Source of the DNA: Achromobacter sp. MYb9
Lineage (GTDB): Bacteria > Pseudomonadota > Gammaproteobacteria > Burkholderiales > Burkholderiaceae_B
NCBI RefSeq assembly: GCF_002975275.1
Contig: NZ_PCOQ01000003.1
Coordinates: 248,001-312,000, forward strand
DNA length: 64,000 nucleotides
Direction of reading: 5' to 3'
Shown here: positions 3,079-14,340 of the stretch, in pieces
Layout of the letters: the number at the start of each line of letters is the position of its first letter
Position numbering within the stretch: position 1 is the first letter of the stretch
Notes under the pieces: generated by a model
Seen by the model: the letters and a program-made list of their open reading frames with translations, nothing else
Databases searched by the model: none
What the model was told of the DNA's origin: nothing
Translations under genes and position numbers: made by a program

Positions 3079-3291
3079 CGGTTGCTGCCCGGCTCCACGT
3101 CACCGGTATTTCTGCTTCTACGACTAAAGACCGATGCGTCCGCACCGGTCCGCTGCTACCGTCCGCCAGGAGCAGTCCCGCAGCTCAGGCTCCGACCGTC
3201 CGGCTGCATGGCAGCGCGGCGGGAGCCGGGCGCGGGGGCTGCCTGGCCGGCGCTGGCGCGGCTTCCTTTTGTCAGCAAGCAGGAGAACATC
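3079..3291 (+). promoter_or_regulatory. Leader/promoter region of the peptide locus (213 bases)
   Basis: No gene or strong promoter can be read here. A direct repeat of CACCGGT occurs at 3101-3107 and 3143-3149, 42 bases or four helical turns apart, which could be a regulator site or chance. The ribosome site AGGAGA lies at 3281-3286. Confidence 0.3.
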
Positions 3292-3489
3292 ATGCAGAAA
3301 ATCAACAAACCGGAACCGTCGGATACGGCAGCGGACCTTCAGGTTCAGCCTTTGACCTCGGAAGAAATCGGCCAGGTCAGCGGCGGCGTAGGCACGGCCC
3401 GGATGCTCACGGCCGTTACGCCAGGCAAAGGCAACGGCGCTCGGGGGAACATGCTGAATACCGGCAAAGGGCTTTTCACCGGAAAGTAA
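3292..3489 (+). CDS. Double-glycine leader peptide 1 (microcin-like or signal precursor)
   Basis: A 65-residue precursor. Residues 1-32 form a leader ending VSGG; its QVQPL (17-21), Glu25 and VSGG (29-32) recur at the same positions in the next peptide. The predicted mature part is 33 residues, rich in Gly, Thr and Lys, with five basic and no acidic residues and no cysteine. The start at 3292 is preferred over an in-frame upstream start at 3082 because AGGAGA lies 5 bases before it and the leader then matches peptide 2 in length. It is the first gene of a peptide-peptide-HlyD-C39 ABC locus. C39 peptidases cut after GG, so export with cleavage is expected. Antibacterial or signalling function is inferred; no immunity gene or modifying enzyme is seen. 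Confidence 0.8.
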   Translation: MQKINKPEPSDTAADLQVQPLTSEEIGQVSGGVGTARMLTAVTPGKGNGARGNMLNTGKGLFTGK

Positions 3490-3533
3490 GTCAACCCGCG
3501 ACGCCATCAACGGCGCGCCAACGGGAGTCATCC

Positions 3534-3716
3534 ATGGAAAAGACCGTGCCTATGGTGTCGATGGACGACACCTCGGAAAAGCAGGTCCAACCGCTCAGCG
3601 AGCGCGAAGTCCTGGAAGTGAGCGGGGGGGCGAATAGCCGGCAAATCTTCATCAAAAGCCCGACGGCCCCCACGGGCCCTGCCGCCAGGCCAAGCCGCCA
3701 GAGCAACTTCCGGTAA
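3534..3716 (+). CDS. Double-glycine leader peptide 2 (microcin-like or signal precursor)
   Basis: A 60-residue precursor encoded 44 bases after peptide 1. The leader is again exactly 32 residues. It shares Lys3, Asp11, QVQPL (17-21), Glu25 and VSGG (29-32) with peptide 1. The predicted 28-residue core is unrelated to core 1: it starts ANSRQIFIKS and continues as a proline/arginine-rich tail with five basic and no acidic residues and no cysteine. A GGAG ribosome site lies about 8 bases before the ATG. Shared leader with diverged cores is what two substrates of one C39 exporter should look like. A terminator follows at 3742-3773. It could be half of a two-peptide bacteriocin, a proline-rich antimicrobial, or a pheromone. 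Confidence 0.78.
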   Translation: MEKTVPMVSMDDTSEKQVQPLSEREVLEVSGGANSRQIFIKSPTAPTGPAARPSRQSNFR

Positions 3717-3741
3717 GCCCGGTTCCAGGCCGCAGTCATGA

Positions 3742-3773
3742 CACGCGGCGGCTTGGCCGTCGCGTGCTTTTTT
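3742..3773 (+). terminator. Intrinsic terminator/attenuator between peptide and exporter genes
   Basis: A 10-base-pair stem (3742-3751 with 3757-3766, one G-U pair) with a 5-base loop is followed directly by six T residues (3768-3773). It lies 25 bases after peptide 2 and 28 bases before the fusion-protein start. Partial termination here would give many peptide transcripts for few exporter transcripts. Confidence 0.75.
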
Positions 3774-3800
3774 CCCTCTGCTTGTTTCAGGCCTTGCCCG

Positions 3801-5048
3801 ATGTCGCTTTATCGCAAACAAGCGCTAGCCGCGCAACGTTCCGTCGGACTGGGCGATATCGTCCTGATCCGGCCGGTGTCGTTTGCCCTGGTCACGGCGG
3901 TGTTGGGCGGCTTCGTGCTGGCCGTGTGCCTGTTCCTGGCGTTCGGCACCTATACCAAGCGCGCGACGGTCAGCGGCCAGCTTGCCCCGGACGCCGGCTT
4001 GCTCAAACTCTATGTGCCACAGGCGGGCGTGGTGCTGGAACGTCCCGCCCGCGAGGGCCAGCATGTCCGGGCAGGCGACGTGCTGTACGTCGTGTCGGGC
4101 GACCAGCAAAGCGCGCTTGGCGACACCCAGCAGGCCATCAGCGGGCAGATACGGCAGCGCGAAGACAGCCTGCGCCAGGCCCGCCAGAAAACTCTGTTGC
4201 TGCAACGAAGCGAACACGACACGCTGGCCGCGGGCATCAACGGATTGACGTCGCAGCTTGCGGCGATCGACAGCCAGATCGACGGCCAACGCGGCCGGAT
4301 CAAGCTGGCGGAGGATAGCGCGCAGCGCTATCGAAACCTGATGGAAAAGGGCTACCTGTCGCCCGAAGAATCCGACCAGAAGCGCGCCGATCTGCTAGAG
4401 CAGCGCAACCAGCTGCAGGCCTTGCTGCGCGACCGCATCGGTATCGCCATGGACCTTGCCAATCGGAAATCTTCGCTGGCCGACCTGACGCTGCGCCAGC
4501 AGAACCAGCTGGCGCAGCTGGACCGCGACCTGGCGGGCGTGGCGGTGGACCTGACCCAAAGCGAAGCCAAGCGTCGCGTCGTCGTGACGGCGCCGCAGGC
4601 GGGCGTGCTGACCGCGATGACGGCCGAGGTGGGCCAGGCGGTGGACCCCCGGCGCCCGCTGGCCGCAATCGTGCCTGACGGCGCCAAGTTGCTGGCCGAG
4701 CTGTACGCGCCCAGCCGCGCGGTGGGTTTCGTGGCGCCGGGCGATGCCGTGCTGATGCGCCTTGAAGCCTACCCATACCAGACCTTCGGCCAGCAGCGCG
4801 GCGTGGTCCAGACCGTGACGCGCAGCGCGTTGCCGGAATGGCAAATGACCGATGGCGCTGCGGGACCGGGCGATAAAGAACCGATGTATCGGATAACGGT
4901 ATCGCTGGACACGCCGGCGCACGGCCCCCAGGGGCAGGTGCTGGCGTTGCGGCCCGGCATGCGGCTGGACGCGGACCTGCTTCAGCAGACGCGCCGCCTG
5001 TACCAATGGGCGTTCGATCCCGCCTATCGACTGTCGGGGAAACTGTGA
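3801..5048 (+). CDS. HlyD/CvaA-type membrane fusion protein of peptide exporter
   Basis: A 415-residue periplasmic adaptor linking an inner-membrane ABC exporter to an outer-membrane channel. One transmembrane helix (about 33-53, SFALVTAVLGGFVLAVCLFL) is followed by a lipoyl-like half-motif (VPQAGVVLERPAREGQHVRAGD), a long coiled coil (about 110-245, heptad-rich Gln/Leu/Arg) and the returning half-motif VVVTAPQAGVLTAMTAEVGQ. The ATG at 3801 is chosen because it gives the usual short cytoplasmic tip MSLYRKQ; the frame upstream runs through the terminator hairpin. It ends 2 bases before the ABC gene. No TolC-type channel is encoded nearby, so an outer-membrane partner elsewhere is needed. Confidence 0.92.
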   Translation: MSLYRKQALAAQRSVGLGDIVLIRPVSFALVTAVLGGFVLAVCLFLAFGTYTKRATVSGQLAPDAGLLKLYVPQAGVVLERPAREGQHVRAGDVLYVVSGDQQSALGDTQQAISGQIRQREDSLRQARQKTLLLQRSEHDTLAAGINGLTSQLAAIDSQIDGQRGRIKLAEDSAQRYRNLMEKGYLSPEESDQKRADLLEQRNQLQALLRDRIGIAMDLANRKSSLADLTLRQQNQLAQLDRDLAGVAVDLTQSEAKRRVVVTAPQAGVLTAMTAEVGQAVDPRRPLAAIVPDGAKLLAELYAPSRAVGFVAPGDAVLMRLEAYPYQTFGQQRGVVQTVTRSALPEWQMTDGAAGPGDKEPMYRITVSLDTPAHGPQGQVLALRPGMRLDADLLQQTRRLYQWAFDPAYRLSGKL

Positions 5049-5050
5049 CC

Positions 5051-7219
5051 ATGCTTGAACGCCTGACGCTCGGCGTCAAACGGCGGGTGCCCAGGCTCCT
5101 GCAAACCGAGGCCGCCGAGTGCGGACTGGCTTGCGTGGGCATGGTTGCGGGGTTCCATGGCCACCACCAAAGCCTGGCCAGCCTGCGCGGCCGCTTTCCC
5201 GTGTCGCTCAAAGGCGCCACGCTTGCAACGCTGATTCATGTGGCCGGCCAGCTGGGGCTGGCGTCCCGGCCCGTGAAGGCGGGCCTGGGCGCGCTTGGCA
5301 AGCTGAAACTTCCCTGCATCCTGCATTGGGAGTTCAACCACTTCGTGGTGCTGACCGACATCAATGCGCGGTCGGCCACGCTGATCGACCCCGCCTCTGG
5401 CGTCCGGAAATGCACCATTAGCGAGCTGTCCGCGTCGTACACCGGCGTGGCGCTGGAACTGTGGCCGACGCCGGATTTCCAGACGGCCAACGAGAACAAA
5501 CCGGTCCGGCTACGTGAACTGACGGGGCGAGTTACCGGCCTGGGCGCGGCGTTTTCGCAGGTAATGCTGCTGGCGTTGGCGCTGGAAGTGCTGACGGTGG
5601 TTCAGCCCTTTTTTCTGCAATGGGTCGTGGACCACGTGTTGAACACCGGTGACCGCGACCTTCTGACCACGCTGGCGCTGGCCTTTGGCCTGCTGATGGT
5701 GATGCTGCAGCTGACGTCGGTGGCGCGCAGCTGGATGCTGATGTTCATGGGCACGACGCTGAACCTGCAATGGCGCAGCAACGTCTTCACGCATCTGCTG
5801 CGGCTGCCTGTCGGGTACTTCGAAAAGCGGCACCTGGGTGACATCGTGTCGCGCTTCGGGGCCATCGACACCATCCAGCGCACCGTCACCACGTCGTTCC
5901 TGGAGGCGCTGCTGGACGGCATCGTCATGGTGATCACGCTGGTGTTGATGTTCTTGTACAGCCCGCCGCTGGCGTGGATCGCGGTGGGCGCGATGGCGTT
6001 GTACGGGCTGGCGCGGTGGTCTGGCTATGCGTCGCTGCGCTATGCCACCGAAGAACACATCATTCACGCCGCGAAAGAACAATCGCACTTTCTGGAAACC
6101 GTGCGCGGGGTCAAGGCGATCAAGCTATTCCAGCATCAGAACGACCGGCGTTCGCGTTGGCTGGCGCTGCTGGTCAATGAAATCAATGCCGATCTGCGTG
6201 TGCAGAAGTGGGCGCTGTTTTTCCGCACGTTCAACGGTCTGCTCTTTGGCCTGTCGTCGATTGCGATCCTGTGGCTGGGCGCGCGGCTGGTCCTGGATGG
6301 CCAGTTCACGGTCGGCGCCTTGCTGGCCTTCATCGTCTACAAGACCCTGTTCGACAAGCGGGTGGCGGCGCTGCTGGACAAGTTCGTGGAAGTGAAAATG
6401 TTGCGGCTGCAGGGCGAACGCCTGGCGGATATCGTCCGCGAGACGCCGGAAGCCGCCGACGAGATGCCGCGCGCGGATGGCGCCGTGACGCAGTCACCCG
6501 CCATCGAAGTGCGCAATCTGCGTTTTCGCTATAGCCCGCAAGAGCCTTACGTCCTGGACGATGTCAGCTTTCGCATTGAACCGGGCGAATCCGTCGCCAT
6601 CACGGGCCCCTCCGGCGGCGGCAAGACGACGCTGATCAATATCCTGCTGGGCATCCTGACGCCTACTGAAGGCGAAGTGCTGGTCGACGGCGTGCCGGTG
6701 CGCGGAATGGGCGCGGCCGCCCTGCGCAGGATGGCGGGAACGGTGCTGCAGGACGATGTGCTGTTTGCCGGATCCATCGGCGAGAACATCAGCTTCTTCG
6801 ACCCGCAGTACGACCCGGACCGAGCCGCCGAATGCGCGGCAATCGCCGCCATTCACGACGACATCTGCGCGATGCCCATGGGCTACAACACGCTGGTTGG
6901 CGACATGGGGACGGTATTGTCCGGCGGGCAGAAACAACGCGTGTTGCTGGCGCGCGCGCTCTACAAGCAGCCGGCGCTGCTGTTCCTGGACGAGGCGACA
7001 AGCCATTTGGACATCACGCGCGAGCGGGTGGTCAACGTGGCCATCGCCAAACTGAACATGACGCGGGTGATCGTGGCGCATCGGCCCGACACCATCGCCG
7101 CGGCCGGGCGCGAGATTGCGCTCGCGGGCGGCAAGGTCGCCGCCGACAGCGGCGCGCCTAAACTGGCTTCCCGAACACGCCGCCGCGCCGAGCCACAAGC
7201 GTCGCCTGTGTACGATTAA
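5051..7219 (+). CDS. Peptidase-C39 bacteriocin-type ABC exporter/maturase
   Basis: A 722-residue bifunctional exporter of the CvaB/LagD class. Residues 1-135 form a C39 cysteine peptidase with an intact triad: Cys24 in TEAAECGLAC, His97 in WEFNHFVVL and Asp113 in LIDPASG. Oxyanion-type Gln18 is also present. Six transmembrane helices occupy about 165-430. The ATPase domain has GPSGGGKTT, the signature LSGGQKQR, Walker B LLFLDEA and a switch histidine in IVAHRPD. It should cleave the double-glycine leaders of the two upstream peptides and export the cores. The ATG at 5051 is used because it puts the peptidase Cys at the normal distance from the N-terminus. Its last 62 bases overlap the convergent regulator gene. 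Confidence 0.95.
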   Translation: MLERLTLGVKRRVPRLLQTEAAECGLACVGMVAGFHGHHQSLASLRGRFPVSLKGATLATLIHVAGQLGLASRPVKAGLGALGKLKLPCILHWEFNHFVVLTDINARSATLIDPASGVRKCTISELSASYTGVALELWPTPDFQTANENKPVRLRELTGRVTGLGAAFSQVMLLALALEVLTVVQPFFLQWVVDHVLNTGDRDLLTTLALAFGLLMVMLQLTSVARSWMLMFMGTTLNLQWRSNVFTHLLRLPVGYFEKRHLGDIVSRFGAIDTIQRTVTTSFLEALLDGIVMVITLVLMFLYSPPLAWIAVGAMALYGLARWSGYASLRYATEEHIIHAAKEQSHFLETVRGVKAIKLFQHQNDRRSRWLALLVNEINADLRVQKWALFFRTFNGLLFGLSSIAILWLGARLVLDGQFTVGALLAFIVYKTLFDKRVAALLDKFVEVKMLRLQGERLADIVRETPEAADEMPRADGAVTQSPAIEVRNLRFRYSPQEPYVLDDVSFRIEPGESVAITGPSGGGKTTLINILLGILTPTEGEVLVDGVPVRGMGAAALRRMAGTVLQDDVLFAGSIGENISFFDPQYDPDRAAECAAIAAIHDDICAMPMGYNTLVGDMGTVLSGGQKQRVLLARALYKQPALLFLDEATSHLDITRERVVNVAIAKLNMTRVIVAHRPDTIAAAGREIALAGGKVAADSGAPKLASRTRRRAEPQASPVYD

Positions 7220-7793
7220 GCACGCCAAGCGCGCCCAGAATCGCCGACACATGTGTCTTGACGGTTTTTTCCGTCATGTTGAGGCGTTCCGAGATTTCCT
7301 TGTTGCGCAGGCCGTCGCACATCAGCCGCAGCACTTCGCCCTGGCGCGGCGTCAAGGTGCGCAGCAGGGCGGCATCGTCCTGTGCGCCGGCTGGCGCGCC
7401 GGCAGCGAATTTGCCGGGCAGGGTGTCGGCCGCGTTAAGCGTTTCCAGTGCCGCGGCCAGCTCCTGGCAACTGGCGGATTTGTTCAGATAGCCGCGCGCG
7501 CCGGCCTCCATCGCGCGGCGCTCGTCTTCGGGGTCCTGCGAGGCGGACAGCACCAGCACGCGTAGTTGCGAGCGCCGTTGGCGCAAGCGCTTGAGAAGGT
7601 CCGCGCCGGCCATGTCGGGCAGGTAGTAGTCCATGATGACGTTGCCGATGCCGGTGTGGCGCTCCAGCACATCCAGCGCTTCCTGGCCGCTGGCGGCGGG
7701 ATGCACCGTCAGCGCCGGCAGGGCATGCGCCAGCGCCATGACCAGGGCTTCGCGGAACATGGCGTGATCATCGACAAGCAATACGGCCTTCAT
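7158..7793 (-). CDS. NarL/FixJ-type response regulator (LuxR HTH)
   Basis: A 211-residue regulator. The receiver domain has VDDH at 7-10, phospho-acceptor Asp55 in IMDYYLPD, and Lys in YLNKSAS. A linker rich in Ala and Gly leads to a LuxR-type helix-turn-helix (about 142-205: LTPRQGEVLRLM, EKTVKTHV). Its ATG overlaps the TGA of the hybrid kinase by 4 bases, so the kinase is the likely partner. The 3' end runs 62 bases into the end of the convergent C39 exporter gene, so strong transcription of one gene would be antisense to the other. A role in controlling the peptide locus is only suggested by position. Confidence 0.92.
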   Translation of the reverse strand: MKAVLLVDDHAMFREALVMALAHALPALTVHPAASGQEALDVLERHTGIGNVIMDYYLPDMAGADLLKRLRQRRSQLRVLVLSASQDPEDERRAMEAGARGYLNKSASCQELAAALETLNAADTLPGKFAAGAPAGAQDDAALLRTLTPRQGEVLRLMCDGLRNKEISERLNMTEKTVKTHVSAILGALGVLNRTQATLVARRGGVFGKPV

Positions 7794-9625
7794 TCGGCGT
7801 CTCCGGAGTGGGGGCTGGCGGCGGATGCCCGCAGCATGGCCGTCACGCGTTCGCGCAACGCCTGCACTTGAACCGGCTTATGCAATAGGGGGATGCCGCG
7901 CGCGGCGGCTTCGGCCAGCCGCGCTGGATCGGTGTCGCCGCTGACCAGCAGCGCGGGCAGGTCCGGATCGTTGTATTCCTCGCGCAGGCGCTCGATCACG
8001 TGGATGCCGGTTTCGTGTTCGCGCAGGCGATAGTCGCTGATGATCAGGGCAGGGCGTTCGGCCAGCGGCAGCACGCGTTCGAACAGGGCATTGCCGCTGG
8101 TCGCCGCGATGACGCGGCATCCCCAGCTTTCAAACAGCATGGTCAGGCCGGCCAGGTTCTGGGCATCGTCGTCCACCAATAGCGCCAATTGCCCCGGTAG
8201 CCCGGCGTGCCGTGCAGTCGGCCGTGACGCGTCCGGACTGGCCTCGACGGGGCCGGTGTCAACGGCGTAAGACAGCGGCACGGCCACGCTGAATACGGTG
8301 CCGCGACCTTCTTCGGAACGCAATTCCAGCGGGTGGCCCAGCAGCCGCGCCGTGCGACGGACGATCGCCAGGCCCAGCCCCAGACCCTTGCTGCGGTCTC
8401 GTTCCGGATTGCCCAGTTGGTGGAATTCCCAGAAGATCCGTTCCTGTTCGGGTTTGGGAATGCCCGCGCCGTTATCCCAGACTTCAATACGCAATTGGCC
8501 GTCGGCGCGGCGGCAGCCGACCAGCACGCGGCCACCGGCCGTATGCGTGATGGCGTTGCTGATCAGGTTGCGCAGAATGCGTTCCAGCAGCACCGGGTCC
8601 GAAAACACGCTGGCCGAGCAGGCGCGCACGCGCAGCGACATGCCTTTTTCCCTGGCCTGCGGCGCGTATTCGGCGCGCAGCTGGTCCAGCAACGGATTCA
8701 CGGGAAACCCCTGCCAGCGAGGGTCGATGACCCCGGCGTCCAGCCGCGACAGATTCAGCAAGGCATCGAAAAGGTGGCCCATGGCCGCCATCGCGCTGGC
8801 GATGTTGTCGACCAGGTAGTGGCCATGGCGGGACAGGGGCTCGTTGGTCAGCAAGCCCAGGAAGAGATTCACTGCGTGCACCGGTTGGCGCAGGTCATGG
8901 CTGGCGGCGGCGAGAAACCGGGACTTTTCCAGGTCGCTGCGTTCGGCCGCGATTTTCTCCTGGCGCACCTGTTCCAGCAGCGCGAGGTTCTCGTATCCCA
9001 GCCGCAACGCATCCAGATGCGTGCGATTCATGCGATGGATGAAGGCCAGGGTAGCGACCAGGTACGCCAGCCCGCCCGACACCAGCGCCAGATGGATGGC
9101 GGACGGCTGCGCGGCCAGCGCGATGAACATGGGCGCGAAGGCCGGTACCTCGAACGCGTACATGACGGGCAGCACCATGTAGTTCGAGTAGATGGCGCCC
9201 GTGCCCAGGCCAAAGAGGATGACGATGAAAAAGAGCTGATATTCCAGCGGAACGAAGAACGTCCAGTAGGCAAACGGCAGGCCCCACAGGATGCCGGAGC
9301 AAAGGTTCCCCACCAGCATGCGCCGCAGCCAGCGTTGCGCGGCGGCCGGATCCGCGCGACGGCGGTCGTAGGCAAACATGGCGGCCAGGCGCAGCGCGCC
9401 CACGGCAAGCGTCGCCCCGATCCACCACAGGACTTCGTTCAGGGGAAGCACGCCGTGCAACGCAAAGGCCGAAAAGCAGGCGCTGATCAGCGACCCCGCC
9501 AGCGCAAATGGGAAGCTGCGGCGCAAGGCCTCTACCTGCACCTGATGGATGCGGGCGGCATGCGATGAAGCATGCGATGCGGCGGGCGCGGAAGGGGAAG
9601 GAGACGGGCCGATGGCGGGCTGCAC
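7790..9625 (-). CDS. Hybrid sensor histidine kinase with C-terminal receiver
   Basis: A 611-residue inner-membrane kinase. The N-terminal half (about 38-198) has six hydrophobic helices and almost no periplasmic domain. A HisKA domain carries His243 in ASHDLRQPVHAVN. An ATPase domain follows, with NLISNAITHT, EVWDNGAGIP and SKGLGLGLAIV. A receiver domain (about 478-600) has VDDDAQN, Asp531 in IISDYRLREHETG, and HKPVQ. The domain order HisKA-ATPase-REC with a separate LuxR regulator is common in Bordetella-like bacteria. It is coupled to the regulator at 7158-7793 by a 4-base overlap. The signal is unknown; a multi-helix membrane sensor without periplasmic domain fits a hydrophobic or membrane-derived cue. 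Confidence 0.92.
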   Translation of the reverse strand: MQPAIGPSPSPSAPAASHASSHAARIHQVQVEALRRSFPFALAGSLISACFSAFALHGVLPLNEVLWWIGATLAVGALRLAAMFAYDRRRADPAAAQRWLRRMLVGNLCSGILWGLPFAYWTFFVPLEYQLFFIVILFGLGTGAIYSNYMVLPVMYAFEVPAFAPMFIALAAQPSAIHLALVSGGLAYLVATLAFIHRMNRTHLDALRLGYENLALLEQVRQEKIAAERSDLEKSRFLAAASHDLRQPVHAVNLFLGLLTNEPLSRHGHYLVDNIASAMAAMGHLFDALLNLSRLDAGVIDPRWQGFPVNPLLDQLRAEYAPQAREKGMSLRVRACSASVFSDPVLLERILRNLISNAITHTAGGRVLVGCRRADGQLRIEVWDNGAGIPKPEQERIFWEFHQLGNPERDRSKGLGLGLAIVRRTARLLGHPLELRSEEGRGTVFSVAVPLSYAVDTGPVEASPDASRPTARHAGLPGQLALLVDDDAQNLAGLTMLFESWGCRVIAATSGNALFERVLPLAERPALIISDYRLREHETGIHVIERLREEYNDPDLPALLVSGDTDPARLAEAAARGIPLLHKPVQVQALRERVTAMLRASAASPHSGDAE

Positions 9626-9695: not shown

Positions 9696-11669
9696 TTAGA
9701 CCGATTGCGGCGCGACAGGGCGTATTTGCAGCACGGCGGTCAAGACGGTCTGGCCTGGCGCGGACGAGACCTCAAGCATCCCGTTCACGCGGGCAATGCG
9801 GGCATGCATGCTGCGCATGCCGACGCTGACGCCCGCTTGCCGCACGGCCGCCACGTCGAAGCCGGCGCCGTTGTCTTCGATCCGAAGCCGCAGCTCGCCA
9901 GGCGCGGGTTGCAGCAGCTGTAGTTGCACGCGGCGCGCGCGGCTGTGCTTGACCACGTTGGTCAGGGCCTCTTCCACCAACCGGGTCAGCGCCAGGCATT
10001 GCAGGGGCGTGGGCGGCGTGACCCATTGCGGCGGGAACTGCCAGCTGGACGCCAGGTCCAGTTCGTCGAAGAGTTGCACGAAGCGGTGGCGAAGCGGGGC
10101 GGCCCATTCCAGCGGCGTCGCCGGCACTTTGACGTCGGCGCTTGAACCGCTGTCGATCGTCTGGCGCAGGTCGTCGCGCAGCAGTTTCAGCATGGACAGA
10201 AATTGCTGGCCCTGTAGTGGCGCCTTGGCCTGTTCCACCATGGCCATCATGCGTACCAGCGATCCGCCCAGCCCATCATGCAGGTCATGCGCGATCTGCA
10301 ACCGTTCCTGCAGACGGGTGTTGCTCATGGCCAGCGCGTGCTCGCGCTCCAAGGTGTCGGCCAGTTCCGTGCGAGCCTGCGCGATGCCGTCCGCCAGTTC
10401 GTGGTTGAAGCGTTCGATGCGCCGCACGTTGCGCGCATGGCGCATTCCCAGGATGGCGGACATGAAGAGGGTGACGACGATGCTGGAAACCGAGGTGTAG
10501 GTCGGCCCGGGGCCGATCAGTTTCATCATCAGCAGCAAGTCGTGGATGCTGACGGCGAAGATGATCAGCAGGCACGCCGCCAGCATCCCGTGTTCCGGTT
10601 GCCGCGTCCGCCATGCATGCCAGGAGAACTGCAGGCAGTTTCCCAGGAAAATGGCGGCGCTTCCCAGCACGCCCGCGCTCAACGCATGGGGCAGCGCGGC
10701 ATCAGGCGTGAACGCCAGCATGGCCAGCATCGCGGCCGAGACGATCCACAGTGCGCGCTCGGTGCGAGGCAGCGATTGTTCGCCGAAGCGCCAGATGAAG
10801 AGGCAGAAGCAGGCCGCATACAGCACCAGGGCCATGGCGTTGGCGCGCGCCGCCATCAGGGTGCTGGCGAACGGCCAGGGGTCCGTCGCCAGCACGTTGG
10901 CGACGAACAGCACCCAGAACAGCGCCATCAGCGCGTACCAGCCGTAGGTGGTCTGTTCGCGGCGGACGATCCAGATGCAGAAGAACAGCGCGCCCAGAAC
11001 GCCGGAGACGATCAGGTTCAGCACGTACAGGGTGCGGTTCGTCCACCACAGGTCTTCCTGCAGGGCCTGCATGGCCCGCGATCCGCCCAGGTGGACCGGG
11101 CCCATGCCCGGCGTCTGCTGCCATAGGCCGACCACGCGCACCCACAGCGTGTTCACGCCGTCGTGCAGCAAGGCTTCGGGCAGGCGCCAGTAGCGCGGCA
11201 TGTTCCAGCTGCGCGACAGCGGCTCCGTCAGGTGCGGATCGCGCCAGATCAGTTCATCGTTGATGAAGATCTCGCCGGCCATGACCACGGATTCGAGCGT
11301 CAGGCCGACCGATCCGGCTTGCGCGCCGGGGCATTGGCGTTGCCAGTCGATGCGGTACCAGACCGTGCCGCTGTAGTCCGGCCACCGCTTCGCCCAGTCG
11401 TCGGGCAGCGTGACCGGCAGCCAGGGCGAGGCGTCAGGCCGGCTGCCGTCGGCCGCGCCCTGGGCGGCGGCGATGGACAGCACCTGGACTGTGCAGGCCG
11501 CAGGCGACGCGGGCGCGGCTTCGGCCAGGGCCGGGACCAGAAGCGCGCACAGCGCCAGCCAGCATGCGAACCACCCCCTCAGTCCAGCAAGCCCCGCGCG
11601 CGCGCGGTATGCACCGCCCGCGTGCGCGAGGAGACTGCCAGTTTGCGGTAGATGTGCTTGATGTGACAT
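9696..11669 (-). CDS. 7TMR-DISM-type sensor histidine kinase
   Basis: A 657-residue kinase. A signal-like segment at about 30-51 precedes a periplasmic jelly-roll/galactose-binding-like domain (about 80-200: WYRIDW, GEIFINDELIW, NTLWVRVVG). Seven hydrophobic helices follow (about 214-410), then a HisKA_3 transmitter with His464 in AHDLHDGLGGSLV and an ATPase domain with EEALTNVVKHS and RIEDNGAGF. This is the 7TMR-DISM layout, thought to sense carbohydrate-like ligands. The first ATG lies 91 bases inside the upstream regulator gene; a later CTG just before LRGWFACW would give a cleaner signal peptide, so the true start is uncertain. It pairs with the LuxR regulator at 11579-12262. Confidence 0.88.
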   Translation of the reverse strand: MSHQAHLPQTGSLLAHAGGAYRARAGLAGLRGWFACWLALCALLVPALAEAAPASPAACTVQVLSIAAAQGAADGSRPDASPWLPVTLPDDWAKRWPDYSGTVWYRIDWQRQCPGAQAGSVGLTLESVVMAGEIFINDELIWRDPHLTEPLSRSWNMPRYWRLPEALLHDGVNTLWVRVVGLWQQTPGMGPVHLGGSRAMQALQEDLWWTNRTLYVLNLIVSGVLGALFFCIWIVRREQTTYGWYALMALFWVLFVANVLATDPWPFASTLMAARANAMALVLYAACFCLFIWRFGEQSLPRTERALWIVSAAMLAMLAFTPDAALPHALSAGVLGSAAIFLGNCLQFSWHAWRTRQPEHGMLAACLLIIFAVSIHDLLLMMKLIGPGPTYTSVSSIVVTLFMSAILGMRHARNVRRIERFNHELADGIAQARTELADTLEREHALAMSNTRLQERLQIAHDLHDGLGGSLVRMMAMVEQAKAPLQGQQFLSMLKLLRDDLRQTIDSGSSADVKVPATPLEWAAPLRHRFVQLFDELDLASSWQFPPQWVTPPTPLQCLALTRLVEEALTNVVKHSRARRVQLQLLQPAPGELRLRIEDNGAGFDVAAVRQAGVSVGMRSMHARIARVNGMLEVSSAPGQTVLTAVLQIRPVAPQSV

Positions 11670-12262
11670 TCGACGGTGTAGCGCGACAGGAACAGCTGCT
11701 CGGCGATTTCTCGATTGGCAAGCCCTTCGGCCACCAGGCGAAGGATCTGGCTTTCGCGGGGGCTAAGTATCTCACCGCTTGGCGTACCGGGCTGTTCCGC
11801 GGGCCGGGGGCGCAGTTCTTCGATGATGCGCCGCGCGACGAAGGGATCGATCGGCGCGCCGCCTCGCAGCACGCTGCGCAAGGACAGCGCAACTTCGATG
11901 TCGTCGCGTTCCTTCAGCACATAGCCCGTCGCGCCGGCGCGCAACGCCGCCAGGATCGCGTCTTCCGTGCACCAGGCGGAAATGACCAGGATGGCCAGGC
12001 CGGGGTCGGCCGCGTGCATCTCGGCGATCAGGTCGATGCCGCTGCCGTCCGGCAGGCCCAGATCCACCAGCGCCAGCGCGACCGGCTGGTTGGCCAGGCA
12101 GGCCCGCGCCTCGACCAGCGACCCGGCGTAGACCAGGGCGTCGGGCTGATACCCAAGTTGCAGCAGCAGTCCTTCCAGCCGGCGGCAGACCAGGGGTTCG
12201 TCTTCCACCAGCAGCACCGGCGCCGGCAGGGTGAGTTCGGGGGCTTGCAGGGTGTCGGACAT
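11579..12262 (-). CDS. NarL/FixJ-type response regulator (LuxR HTH)
   Basis: A 227-residue regulator with a receiver domain (acidic pocket VEDEP at 19-23, Asp67 in LVDLGLPDG, Lys in VLKERDD) and a LuxR helix-turn-helix near 160-220 (LSPRESQILRLV, RYTVECHIKHIYRKL). It overlaps the start of the 7TMR-DISM kinase by 91 bases and is the first gene of the four-gene minus-strand signalling set. It presumably receives phosphate from that HisKA_3 kinase, as NarX/NarL-like pairs do. Its target genes are unknown; the divergent chemoreceptor and the convergent peptide locus are both candidates by position only. Confidence 0.92.
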   Translation of the reverse strand: MSDTLQAPELTLPAPVLLVEDEPLVCRRLEGLLLQLGYQPDALVYAGSLVEARACLANQPVALALVDLGLPDGSGIDLIAEMHAADPGLAILVISAWCTEDAILAALRAGATGYVLKERDDIEVALSLRSVLRGGAPIDPFVARRIIEELRPRPAEQPGTPSGEILSPRESQILRLVAEGLANREIAEQLFLSRYTVECHIKHIYRKLAVSSRTRAVHTARARGLLD

Positions 12263-12373
12263 AAGGGGGAGGGCTGGAAAGGCGGGATCGCCCGATTCTA
12301 ATTGTGAGGGGGGCGTGGACAGGGCGGCTATCCCTGGAAACAGGTAAAAGCCGAAAATTCAAGGGTTTACCCC

Positions 12374-12400
12374 TAAAGTCCGGGCCGGGAATGCCGTAAG
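12374..12400 (+). promoter_or_regulatory. Sigma-28 (FliA)-like promoter of the chemoreceptor gene
   Basis: TAAAGTCC at 12374-12381, an 11-base spacer, and GCCGTAAG at 12393-12400. The E. coli FliA consensus is TAAAGTTT-N11-GCCGATAA; 6 of 8 and 5 of 8 positions agree and the spacer is exact. It sits 80 bases before the start of a methyl-accepting chemotaxis protein, which is the expected class of target. Confidence 0.6.
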
Positions 12401-12480
12401 CCCATCGTGGCCGTCGGTTTTCGACCGTGGGCCGTGGACCCGTGTCCTCCGATATGGGCAGTGGCTGAAATAAGGCAAGC

Positions 12481-14340
12481 ATGAAAATTACCTCGTTGCG
12501 CAACCGGATCCTGTTGATTACTTGCTTTACCGTTGTCGGCGCCCTGGTGCTGTCCGGGATCACGACCTACCAGATCGTCCGCAGCAACATGATGGCGACG
12601 ATCTCCGGCAACCTGGACGCCATTGCCGCCGGCAATGCCAGCGCCATCGAACGCTGGTCCGAGGACAAGGCCCAGGCCGTCGTTGCGACCGCCGCCGTGG
12701 TTGAAAAAGGCGACCCTCGCGGCCTGACCAAATTGATGGGCGAAACCAACGGCTTTCCCATTTCCACCATTGGGTGGTCCGACAAGACCTTTTTCTCGAC
12801 CACGCAGGTGGCGGCCGACTACGATCCCACGGCGCGCCCCTGGTACAAAAGCGCGGTCGCGGCGGGCAAGCTGACGGTCACCAAGCCGTATGGCGATTCG
12901 GGCACGGGCAAGCTCTATGTGGCGTTCACCACGCCGATGATCCGCGGCGGCCAGACGACGGGCGTGTTGAGCGGCGCCGTCCCGCTGGACGGCATCCAGA
13001 ACATCATCCGCGCGATCCGTCCCACGCCGTCCAGCCTGGCTTTCGTGGTGGCGACCGACGGACAGGTCATTGCGCACGTGAACGACAAGCTGGCGCTCAA
13101 GCCCTCCACGGACGTGGCGCCTGAACTGACGCCTGCCGCGCTGTCGGCAATGTTGCGCGACGGCGCCGAACCGTTGACCGTCAACCTGGATGGGGTGCCA
13201 AAGCTGCTCAAGGCCCGCCGCATTCCCGGCACGGACTGGTCGCTGGTGATCGCGCTGGACAGCGCCGAAGCCACCGCTGGCCTGGCGCAGGTGCTGAACG
13301 CTACATTGATCTCGCTGGTGGTGCTGACGCTGCTGGCCGTGGCCATCGCAAGCGTGGTGACCTCCCGCGCGTTCAAGCGTCTGTCGGCCGTGCGCGACGC
13401 GATGGACACCATCGGCTCCGGCGACGGCGACATGACGCATCGCCTGGAAGTCGTGGGCCATGACGAAGTGGCGCAGATCTCGTCGTCGTTCAACGCGTTT
13501 GTCGACAAAATCAGCACGGTGATGCTGGACGTGCGCACGGGCGTGCATTCGATGTCCGCCGCCACCAGCGAAATCGACATGGGCAACCGCGACCTGTCGC
13601 AGCGCACTGAAACGTCGGCGGGGTCCCTGCAGGAAACGTCGTCGGCGCTGACGCAGCTGACCTCCAGCGTCCGCCAGACGGAAGAGGCGGCGCAGCACGC
13701 CACGCGCCTGGCCACGGAAGCCAGCTCCGCTGCGGAACGTGGCGGTCAGGTCGTCACGGACGCGGTGACGACGATGAGCGCCATTTCGCAATCGTCGCAA
13801 CGCATCACCGAGATCATCAGCGTGATCGACGGCATTGCCTTCCAGACCAACATCCTGGCGCTGAACGCGGCCGTCGAAGCCGCGCGCGCTGGCGAGCAAG
13901 GCCGCGGCTTTGCCGTCGTGGCGGGCGAAGTCCGCACCTTGGCGCAGCGCAGCGCGGCATCGGCGCAAGAGATCCGGACGCTGATCCAGGCGTCGGTCGA
14001 AAACGTCAAGAGCGGCACCGAACGCGTGCAAGCCGCCGGTTCCACCATGAGCGAGATTGTCGAAGGCATTTCGCGCGTGCAGCGGCTGGTGGCCGAAATC
14101 CACGGCGCGGTGACCGAGCAAAGCGTCGGCATCAGCCAGATCGACCGCAGCGTGGCGGACATGGACCAGGCAACGCAGCAGAACGCGGCACTGGTGGAAG
14201 AGTCGGCGGCAGCGTCGGCCATGCTCAGCGATCAGGCTCGCTTGCTGGCCGATACCGTGGCGCGCTTCAAATTGCGTGACCAGGCCCCTGATTCGGCGCC
14301 CCGCATGCTGGCTTTGCCGCAGTCGGCACCGGCCTATTGA
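12481..14340 (+). CDS. Methyl-accepting chemotaxis protein with dCache_1 sensor
   Basis: A 619-residue chemoreceptor. TM1 is at about 10-30, a periplasmic dCache_1 domain at about 35-270, TM2 at about 278-300, then HAMP and a long cytoplasmic coiled-coil signalling domain. The signalling tip reads [20 protein letters not shown], and [16 protein letters not shown] follows. The sensor contains Arg119, Trp121, Tyr122, Tyr137 and Asp139 with the same spacing as the published amino-acid-binding motif of dCache_1AA receptors such as PctA, so amino acids are the likely attractants. No C-terminal NWETF-like pentapeptide is present. A sigma-28-like promoter precedes it and a strong hairpin follows. 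The motif match is by eye. Confidence 0.95.

What the first reader, a model, noticed from the sequence alone, without database searches (positions are those of the whole stretch)
3292..7219. Two double-glycine peptides with their own C39 ABC exporter and fusion protein
Seen directly: two tandem precursors of 65 and 60 residues have leaders of identical length (32) that share QVQPL at 17-21, Glu25 and VSGG at 29-32. Their cores (33 and 28 residues) are unrelated. The exporter keeps the C39 triad (Cys24, His97, Asp113) and all ABC motifs. Established: C39 exporters cut after GG and secrete the core. Unusual: both cores carry five basic and no acidic residues, no cysteine and no long hydrophobic stretch, unlike class II microcins; core 2 is Pro/Arg-rich. 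No immunity protein and no modifying enzyme is visible. This may be an undescribed small-peptide antimicrobial or signalling system in Alcaligenaceae.
Basis: partly seen in the sequence, partly recalled or inferred. Interest (0 to 1): 0.85.

Follow-up and report, generated by a model that had tools for sequence, protein, structure and literature searches.

The report
Switch-controlled secreted peptides in Achromobacter
A bacterium carries two small, positively charged peptides built to be cut and exported by their own pump; relatives show that they belong to a fast-changing peptide family led by one conserved DNA signal, most likely used against other bacteria, though no activity has been measured.

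Summary
In detail: two GG-leader precursors (3292-3489, 3534-3716), an HlyD-type adaptor and a C39 ABC exporter with intact triad. One point is wrong: the cores are not unrelated. They form a family with similar ends (xG(P)NR-like start, K/R and an aromatic residue near the end) and a fast-changing middle. All 13 Achromobacter genomes (of 43 searched) with the orthologous exporter have 1-2 such precursors; three Pandoraea genomes have 2-5. All 14 exporter loci found first by their exporter start with the box TACGACTAAAG(A/T)CC(G/A)ATG (one with a mismatch), which resembles the binding site of the response regulator CrbR/ErdR. A LuxR-type regulator lies beside the exporter in 13 of 13 Achromobacter loci, with a NahK/ErcS-type hybrid kinase in 11, and its presence tracks the box. 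Searching 32 Pandoraea genomes with the box led from 7 of 7 exact sites (4 new, 1 of the 7 decayed) to precursors. In Achromobacter 14 of 31 box sites precede other genes, among them T6SS tssB, sapC and exported proteins. The kinase sensor is conserved while cores diverge, so the peptides look like output, not signal. Likeliest role: interbacterial antagonism (inferred; no immunity gene seen, no activity data).

The parts
3119..3136 (+). Promoter box TACGACTAAAGACCGATG, resembling the CrbR/ErdR (ACTU) site
   Evidence: Best-conserved 18 bp of the upstream alignment (mean column identity 0.987, median window 0.688); only match with up to 3 mismatches in the window's genome; literature match
3154..3162 (+). 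-10-like stretch TGCTACCGT, 17 bp after the box
   Evidence: Conserved in the upstream alignment; reading as -10 is inference; sigma-70 scan found no consensus promoter
3243..3283 (+). Conserved 5' UTR hairpin beside the ribosome-binding site (inner hairpin 3252-3276)
   Evidence: 98.6% of cells paired against at most 70.7% when slid, 5 compensatory cells, but pairs-with-double-change reached by 93 of 500 shuffles; the window's own stretch folds differently alone
3292..3489 (+). Precursor 1, 65 aa: leader 3292-3387, core VGTARMLTAVTPGKGNGARGNMLNTGKGLFTGK
3534..3716 (+). Precursor 2, 60 aa: leader 3534-3629, core ANSRQIFIKSPTAPTGPAARPSRQSNFR
3742..3773 (+). Intrinsic-terminator-like hairpin (11 pairs) with T run between precursor 2 and HlyD
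   Evidence: the scan of the region found 4 such sites against 3.8 expected, so the case rests on its strength and recurrence
3801..5048 (+). HlyD-type membrane fusion protein, 415 aa
   Evidence: Pfam HlyD_3, TIGR01843 below cutoff
5051..7219 (+). C39 peptidase ABC exporter, 722 aa
   Evidence: Pfam Peptidase_C39, ABC_membrane, ABC_tran; triad intact
7158..7793 (-). LuxR-type (REC + GerE) response regulator, CrbR/ErdR-like, convergent and overlapping the exporter end
   Evidence: adjacent in 13 of 13 Achromobacter loci; co-occurs with the box
7790..9625 (-). Hybrid histidine kinase (six-helix sensor, HisKA, HATPase, REC), NahK/ErcS-like
   Evidence: present in 11 of 13 exporter loci

Best explanation
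A two-component-controlled peptide secretion unit. The CrbR/ErdR-like regulator (7158-7793), driven by its hybrid kinase, binds the box at 3119-3136 and switches on two precursor genes. The C39 domain of the exporter recognises the leader, whose helix ends just before the cut, and cleaves after Gly-Gly; exporter, HlyD protein and an outer-membrane channel encoded elsewhere release the 33- and 28-residue cationic cores. A terminator-like hairpin between precursors and export genes would keep peptide in excess of pump. Similar ends and a fast-changing middle suggest a common uptake or target feature plus a specificity segment; the likeliest role is antagonism of related bacteria, as an output of the switch. 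Shown from sequence: anatomy, family, box, and co-occurrence of box and regulator. Inferred: binding, activation, cleavage, export and antagonism. The regulated-export part alone I hold at about 0.85; the number below is for the whole, antagonism included.
For: Precursors in 13 of 13 exporter loci of Achromobacter; box in all 13 (one with a mismatch) and in P. captiosa; regulator present and box present in 19 of 21 against 1 of 22 genomes, and in the 30 genomes without exporter 6 of 8 against 1 of 22, p = 3e-4; box search in 32 Pandoraea genomes: 7 of 7 exact sites lead to precursors, 4 of them new; regulator in all 3 of those genomes and in 6 of 32 in all, p = 0.004; box like the experimentally tested ACTU motif of CrbR (PMC5715377, passages). 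For antagonism: core dN 4.8-62 times exporter dN in 14 pairs, cationic cores, several precursors per genome, same box before tssB of a T6SS in two relatives.
Against: No immunity gene in the operon. Cores are short, without hydrophobic stretches in 23 of 24 (one search prints the values), unlike verified class II microcins. The regulator is far below the NCBIfam ErdR cutoff (104.6 of 390 bits). 14 of 31 Achromobacter box sites precede other genes, and 3 of 6 Pandoraea genomes with the regulator show no box. One regulator genome (G010) has no box and one box genome (G038, one mismatch) has no close regulator. Genomes are related, so the p values overstate independence. In P. aeruginosa most tested ErdR targets rose in the erdR mutant (PMC9927353, passages), so the sign of control is uncertain.
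Confidence: 0.42

Rival explanations
1. Self-directed or community role: the exported cationic peptides act on the producer population, for example in autolysis, biofilm or surface behaviour, not against rivals.
For: Neisseria Nap peptides, small cationic GG peptides beside a C39 peptidase gene, had no detectable antimicrobial activity and promoted autolysis (PMC11798529, sections 5, 6, 9); EbfG1-4 GG proteins serve biofilm formation (PMC4997328, abstract); no immunity gene; several other box targets are sapC-type or long exported proteins.
Against: Fast change of the core is less expected for a self-directed function; tssB under the same box in two relatives.
Confidence: 0.24
2. Peptide pheromone: the secreted core is sensed, by the neighbouring kinase or another receptor, and feeds back on its own promoter, a Gram-negative counterpart of ComABCDE.
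For: Precursor, exporter, kinase and regulator are adjacent in 11 of 13 Achromobacter loci; the box probably read by that regulator drives the precursors; the kinase has a six-helix sensor.
Against: Sensor at least 83% identical between 11 exporter loci and 0.73-0.91 identical to the window's in 7 loci without exporter, so it does not follow the cores; kinase absent in 2 of 13 exporter genomes; regulator kept in 6 genomes without the exporter; pair unlinked to the exporter in P. captiosa; kinase is HisKA and regulator GerE type.
Confidence: 0.15
3. Relic or annotation artefact: the small frames are not translated or the system is decaying.
For: No Pfam match for either precursor, one sub-cutoff NCBIfam match for precursor 1; one Pandoraea copy is decayed.
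Against: Frame, leader, ribosome-binding site and box kept in 13 of 13 Achromobacter loci; leader dN/dS 0.12-0.45 in 7 divergent pairs (0.62-1.34 or undefined in 7 close pairs with few changes), exporter 0.05-0.14.
Confidence: 0.03

Closest known systems
Class II microcin systems (MccV type; A. baumannii Mcc17978, PMC10333792 abstract)
   Same: Small GG-leader precursor, C39 ABC exporter with the Cys/His/Asp triad, membrane fusion protein, no modifying enzyme, variable cores
   Different: Precursors 58-70 aa against 75-120 aa of verified microcins; no immunity gene in the operon; cores without hydrophobic stretch; box of CrbR/ErdR type, where the Mcc17978 abstract reports a putative Fur site; antibacterial activity unknown
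Neisseria Nap peptides (PMC11798529)
   Same: Several small cationic GG peptides, mature length 16-36 there and 20-38 here, with C39 processing
   Different: Nap island has a separate C39 peptidase gene napP and the channel gene napF, a LagC-like napI and phase variation; here a complete C39 ABC exporter and a two-component box; no sequence comparison was made
CrbS/CrbR (ErdR) acetate regulon of Pseudomonas (PMC5715377)
   Same: LuxR-type regulator and a near-identical inverted-repeat box just upstream of the promoter
   Different: CrbS has an SLC5 transporter sensor; here the kinase has a six-helix sensor and NahK/ErcS-like core; targets are peptides, secretion and surface genes
ComABCDE-type GG pheromone systems (recalled)
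   Same: GG peptide, C39 exporter and adjacent two-component genes; ComA is among the PDB homologues of the exporter
   Different: Kinase and regulator of other families; sensor does not co-vary with the peptide
Caulobacter CdzC/CdzD two-peptide system (recalled, not looked up)
   Same: Two small peptides with a C39 type I export system
   Different: CdzC/D are recalled as glycine-zipper proteins; such cargo occurs with more distant exporters (L028, L030, L035, L044, by eye), not here

Membership tests
Class II microcin system | Precursor with GG/GA leader | tested here: met
Class II microcin system | C39 ABC exporter with Cys, His, Asp | tested here: met
Class II microcin system | Membrane fusion protein | tested here: met
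   HlyD_3
Class II microcin system | Outer-membrane channel (TolC) | not tested
   None in the Achromobacter operon; P. captiosa L016 and Burkholderia L044 have an OEP gene after the exporter; the window's genome was not searched for TolC
Class II microcin system | Cognate immunity gene near the precursor (51-216 aa in verified systems) | tested here: not met
   No such gene in the operon: gaps of 54-142 bp before HlyD in 14 loci; neighbours are the regulator and unrelated genes. An unlinked gene is not excluded
Class II microcin system | Precursor length 75-120 aa | tested here: not met
   60 and 65 aa here; 58-70 aa in A1; range from PMC9746304 passages
Class II microcin system | Antibacterial activity | not testable with these tools
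   needs an assay
CrbR/ErdR-type control | ACTU-type box before the target | tested here: met
   first 11 letters equal the site listed for PFLU0447
CrbR/ErdR-type control | Regulator belongs to ErdR by NCBIfam cutoff | tested here: not met
   104.6 of 390 bits; so 'works like', not 'is', ErdR
NahK/ErcS hybrid kinase family | NCBIfam NF041832 cutoff | tested here: not met
   best hit, 358.3 of 400 bits over residues 228-597
GG-peptide pheromone system (ComABCDE-like) | Receptor kinase that co-varies with the peptide | tested here: not met
   for the adjacent kinase; other receptors not tested
GG-peptide pheromone system (ComABCDE-like) | LytTR-type regulator (recalled) | tested here: not met
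   GerE domain

The most novel reading that the evidence does not exclude
A Gram-negative ribosomal-peptide autoinducer circuit: the invariant ends of the exported cores are sensed by the six-helix hybrid kinase, which through the box drives more peptide and, in sister species, T6SS and exported surface proteins, so that a secreted peptide sets the competitive state of the population while its variable middle acts on rivals.
Probability: 0.12. Interest if true: 0.85.

Novelty: new variant of a known kind. Interest (0 to 1): 0.6.

Why it matters
Functions of GG peptides in Gram-negative bacteria outside the enterics are mostly open. Here a peptide family, its promoter box and its probable regulator come together, so the conditions of expression become testable, and the box finds further members: 7 of 7 exact sites in 32 Pandoraea genomes led to precursors, 4 of them new. 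It also suggests that a CrbR/ErdR-like switch, known from acetate and ethanol metabolism, has been turned to secretion and competition genes in Burkholderiales.

Tried and rejected
Rejected: 'cores unrelated'. Weakened: the adjacent kinase as receptor of the variable core. The first scan for precursors used too strict a pattern and missed most; searches replaced it. Profile search with A1 in 399 genomes of the order: the window's own genome plus 6 genomes with weak matches (E 5.7e-4 to 9.6e-3); only the best, L150, was inspected and shows no GG precursor. Only 27 of the 399 rows are printed, at most 15 candidates per genome are scored, and P. captiosa was not in the sample, so absence elsewhere is not shown. 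Box in the family (268 genomes): outside the window's genus 3 one-mismatch matches against 4 control matches, that is chance level, none before a precursor (L146-L148). Exporter relatives on plasmids at E <= 1e-150: 109 records, best 62% identity. Precursor fold: helix 23-29, core without structure, pLDDT 60. Kinase sensor fold: six helices, pLDDT 84, no PDB match at E <= 0.001. PADLOC: two ATPase-type hits on the exporter only. Rfam: nothing near a gathering score. PDB search with A1: one match at E 0.56. Literature search with ACTAAAG alone gave nothing useful.

Weaknesses: one genome per species, related by descent. The Pandoraea box pattern was widened at one position after two P. captiosa sites had been seen.
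Full report
WHAT IS THERE. The window lies in a 6.68 Mb genome (C3:248001-312000); its exporter is 84-97% identical to named Achromobacter records, so I call the genus Achromobacter. Two small genes at 3292-3489 and 3534-3716 encode precursors with 32-residue leaders ending in VSGG and cores of 33 and 28 residues. An HlyD-type gene (3801-5048) and a C39 ABC exporter gene (5051-7219) follow; triad and ABC motifs are intact. A hairpin of 11 pairs with a T run lies between precursor 2 and hlyD (3742-3773). In the 14 intervals scanned, 8 have a run of four or more T after a foldable stretch; the other 6 show a GC-rich inverted repeat only by eye. Convergent with the exporter are a LuxR-type response regulator (7158-7793) and a hybrid histidine kinase (7790-9625).

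A FAMILY, NOT TWO UNRELATED PEPTIDES. Of 43 genomes of the genus, 13 have the exporter at 83-100% identity; a 14th (G025) has a 53% relative with other cargo. All 13 have a GG precursor in front of hlyD; three (window, L010, L011) have a second in tandem and four (L013, L103, L104, L105) a second, divergent one: 20 precursors. With three of Pandoraea captiosa (L016) they form alignment A1. In 18 representative cores (24, with 6 near-duplicates dropped) G at +2 occurs in 14, K/R at +4/+5 in 18 and an aromatic in the last five in 15, each reached by 0 of 20,000 shuffles; K/R at -9 to -5 in 16, reached by 34. These features were picked after seeing the cores. All 24 cores have 3-6 K/R and 0-1 D/E. 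Over 14 pairs of loci core dN is 4.8-62 times that of the exporter; core dN/dS is 0.40-2.46 in 12 pairs and undefined in 2; exporter 0.05-0.14; leader 0.12-0.45 in the 7 divergent pairs and 0.62-1.34 or undefined in the 7 close ones. Counts are small and core alignments uncertain, so this is no formal test of selection. The model of precursor 1 has a helix at 23-29 and an unstructured core, at low confidence.

THE BOX. In the upstream alignment of the 13 loci the best-conserved stretch is 3118-3136 around TACGACTAAAGACCGATG. It ends 148-162 bp before the start codon in Achromobacter and 247 bp before it in P. captiosa; L010 has one mismatch; the four divergent precursors have a copy with one mismatch at the same distance. 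In the window's genome it is the only match with up to 3 mismatches; the reversed control gives 3. A search of papers for these letters found the ACTU motif of CrbR in Pseudomonas fluorescens: a listed site is TACGACTAAAGTCTAAA, the acs site lies at -52 to -36, and mutation plus an E. coli reporter showed it is required (PMC5715377, passages). CrbR is also named ErdR (PMC12997753, passages). In P. aeruginosa ErdR bound 13 of 15 promoters found, and most tested genes rose in the mutant (PMC9927353, passages), so activation here is inferred from the acs precedent.

THE REGULATOR. NCBIfam places the regulator near NarL and ErdR, far below cutoff (ErdR 104.6 of 390 bits), and the kinase nearest NahK/ErcS (358.3 of 400). 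The regulator is next to the exporter in 13 of 13 loci, whether or not the Dyp/MipA genes of the window flank them; the kinase is missing in two (G028, G014). Regulator (57% or more) and box: 19 of 21 against 1 of 22 genomes; in the 30 genomes without the exporter 6 of 8 against 1 of 22 (p = 3e-4); exceptions are G010, G013 and G038. The genus search gave 31 sites with up to one mismatch, against 1 control match. By my tally precede precursors and 14 do not: tssB (L117 by Pfam, L119 alike), sapC (L121 by Pfam; L124, L130 alike), long exported-protein frames (L125, L126, L136, L141, L142 without Pfam match; L127 with autotransporter domains), a kinase gene (L113), another regulator (L140) and one without clear target (L133). 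Outside the genus the family search gave 3 matches and 4 control matches, that is chance.

PROSPECTIVE TEST. P. captiosa has a regulator 71% identical over the DNA-binding part, convergent with a homologous intact kinase (46%), away from the exporter. Its three box sites (exact or with one mismatch) lead to the exporter operon with three precursors, an orphan precursor (L166) and a decayed copy without usable start (L167). A box search with one position widened, in 32 Pandoraea genomes, gave 7 exact sites in three genomes and 2 one-mismatch sites in a fourth, with 2 control matches; all 7 exact sites lead to precursors of this family (3 were those of P. captiosa, 4 were new), neither of the others does. 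G685 has two tandem orphans, each with its own box, and an operon with three precursors; G670 has an operon with two; both operons have HlyD (57%) and exporter (68%). The regulator is in 6 of 32 genomes, among them all three with exact boxes (p = 0.004); the other three show no box.

HOW IT PROBABLY WORKS. Kinase and regulator act on the box; precursors are made in excess of the pump because of the hairpin; the C39 domain cuts after GG; HlyD, exporter and a channel release the cores. The kinase sensor is 89% identical on average among 11 exporter loci (minimum 83%), more than its ATPase domain (84%), and 73-91% identical to the window's in 7 loci without the exporter. A receptor that follows the variable core would look otherwise, so I read the peptides as output. 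Antagonism is the likeliest role: fast-changing cationic cores, often more than one per genome, and T6SS under the same box in two relatives. The missing immunity gene and the Nap precedent (PMC11798529, sections 5, 6 and 9) keep self-directed roles open. None of this has been tested by experiment.

NOVELTY. GG peptides with C39 exporters in Gram-negative bacteria are a known kind; PMC9746304 (passages) mentions a 2003 survey of 79 genomes. The core family, its box and the regulator link were not found in print in the searches, which cover open-licence papers only. I rate it a new variant of a known kind.

Noticed in passing
window 3243-3283: Hairpin in the 5' UTR beside the ribosome-binding site, conserved in 17 UTRs of main and divergent precursors: 98.6% of cells paired against at most 70.7% when slid. 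Against: pairs with change on both sides are reached by 93 of 500 shuffles, and the window's stretch folds differently on its own. Not in Rfam.
   Followed up: partly
window 9696-12262: A second two-component pair (7TMR-DISM kinase with HisKA_3, and a LuxR-type regulator) follows directly and is syntenic in L009-L012, and in L112 without the exporter.
   Followed up: no
L009 and L011, about 10111-12933: The hybrid kinase is missing although regulator, exporter and precursors remain; the DISM kinase then lies next to the regulator.
   Followed up: partly
L117 and L119, 1501-2143: The same box lies in front of tssB of a type VI secretion system in two genomes without the peptide exporter.
   Followed up: partly
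L028, L030, L035, L044 upstream of HlyD: More distant relatives of the exporter sit beside Gly/Ala-rich GG precursors of another kind (by eye), so the exporter family serves several cargo types.
   Followed up: no
L167, downstream of position 4739: A decayed precursor copy of P. captiosa behind an intact box; G685 has an intact relative (L170).
   Followed up: no
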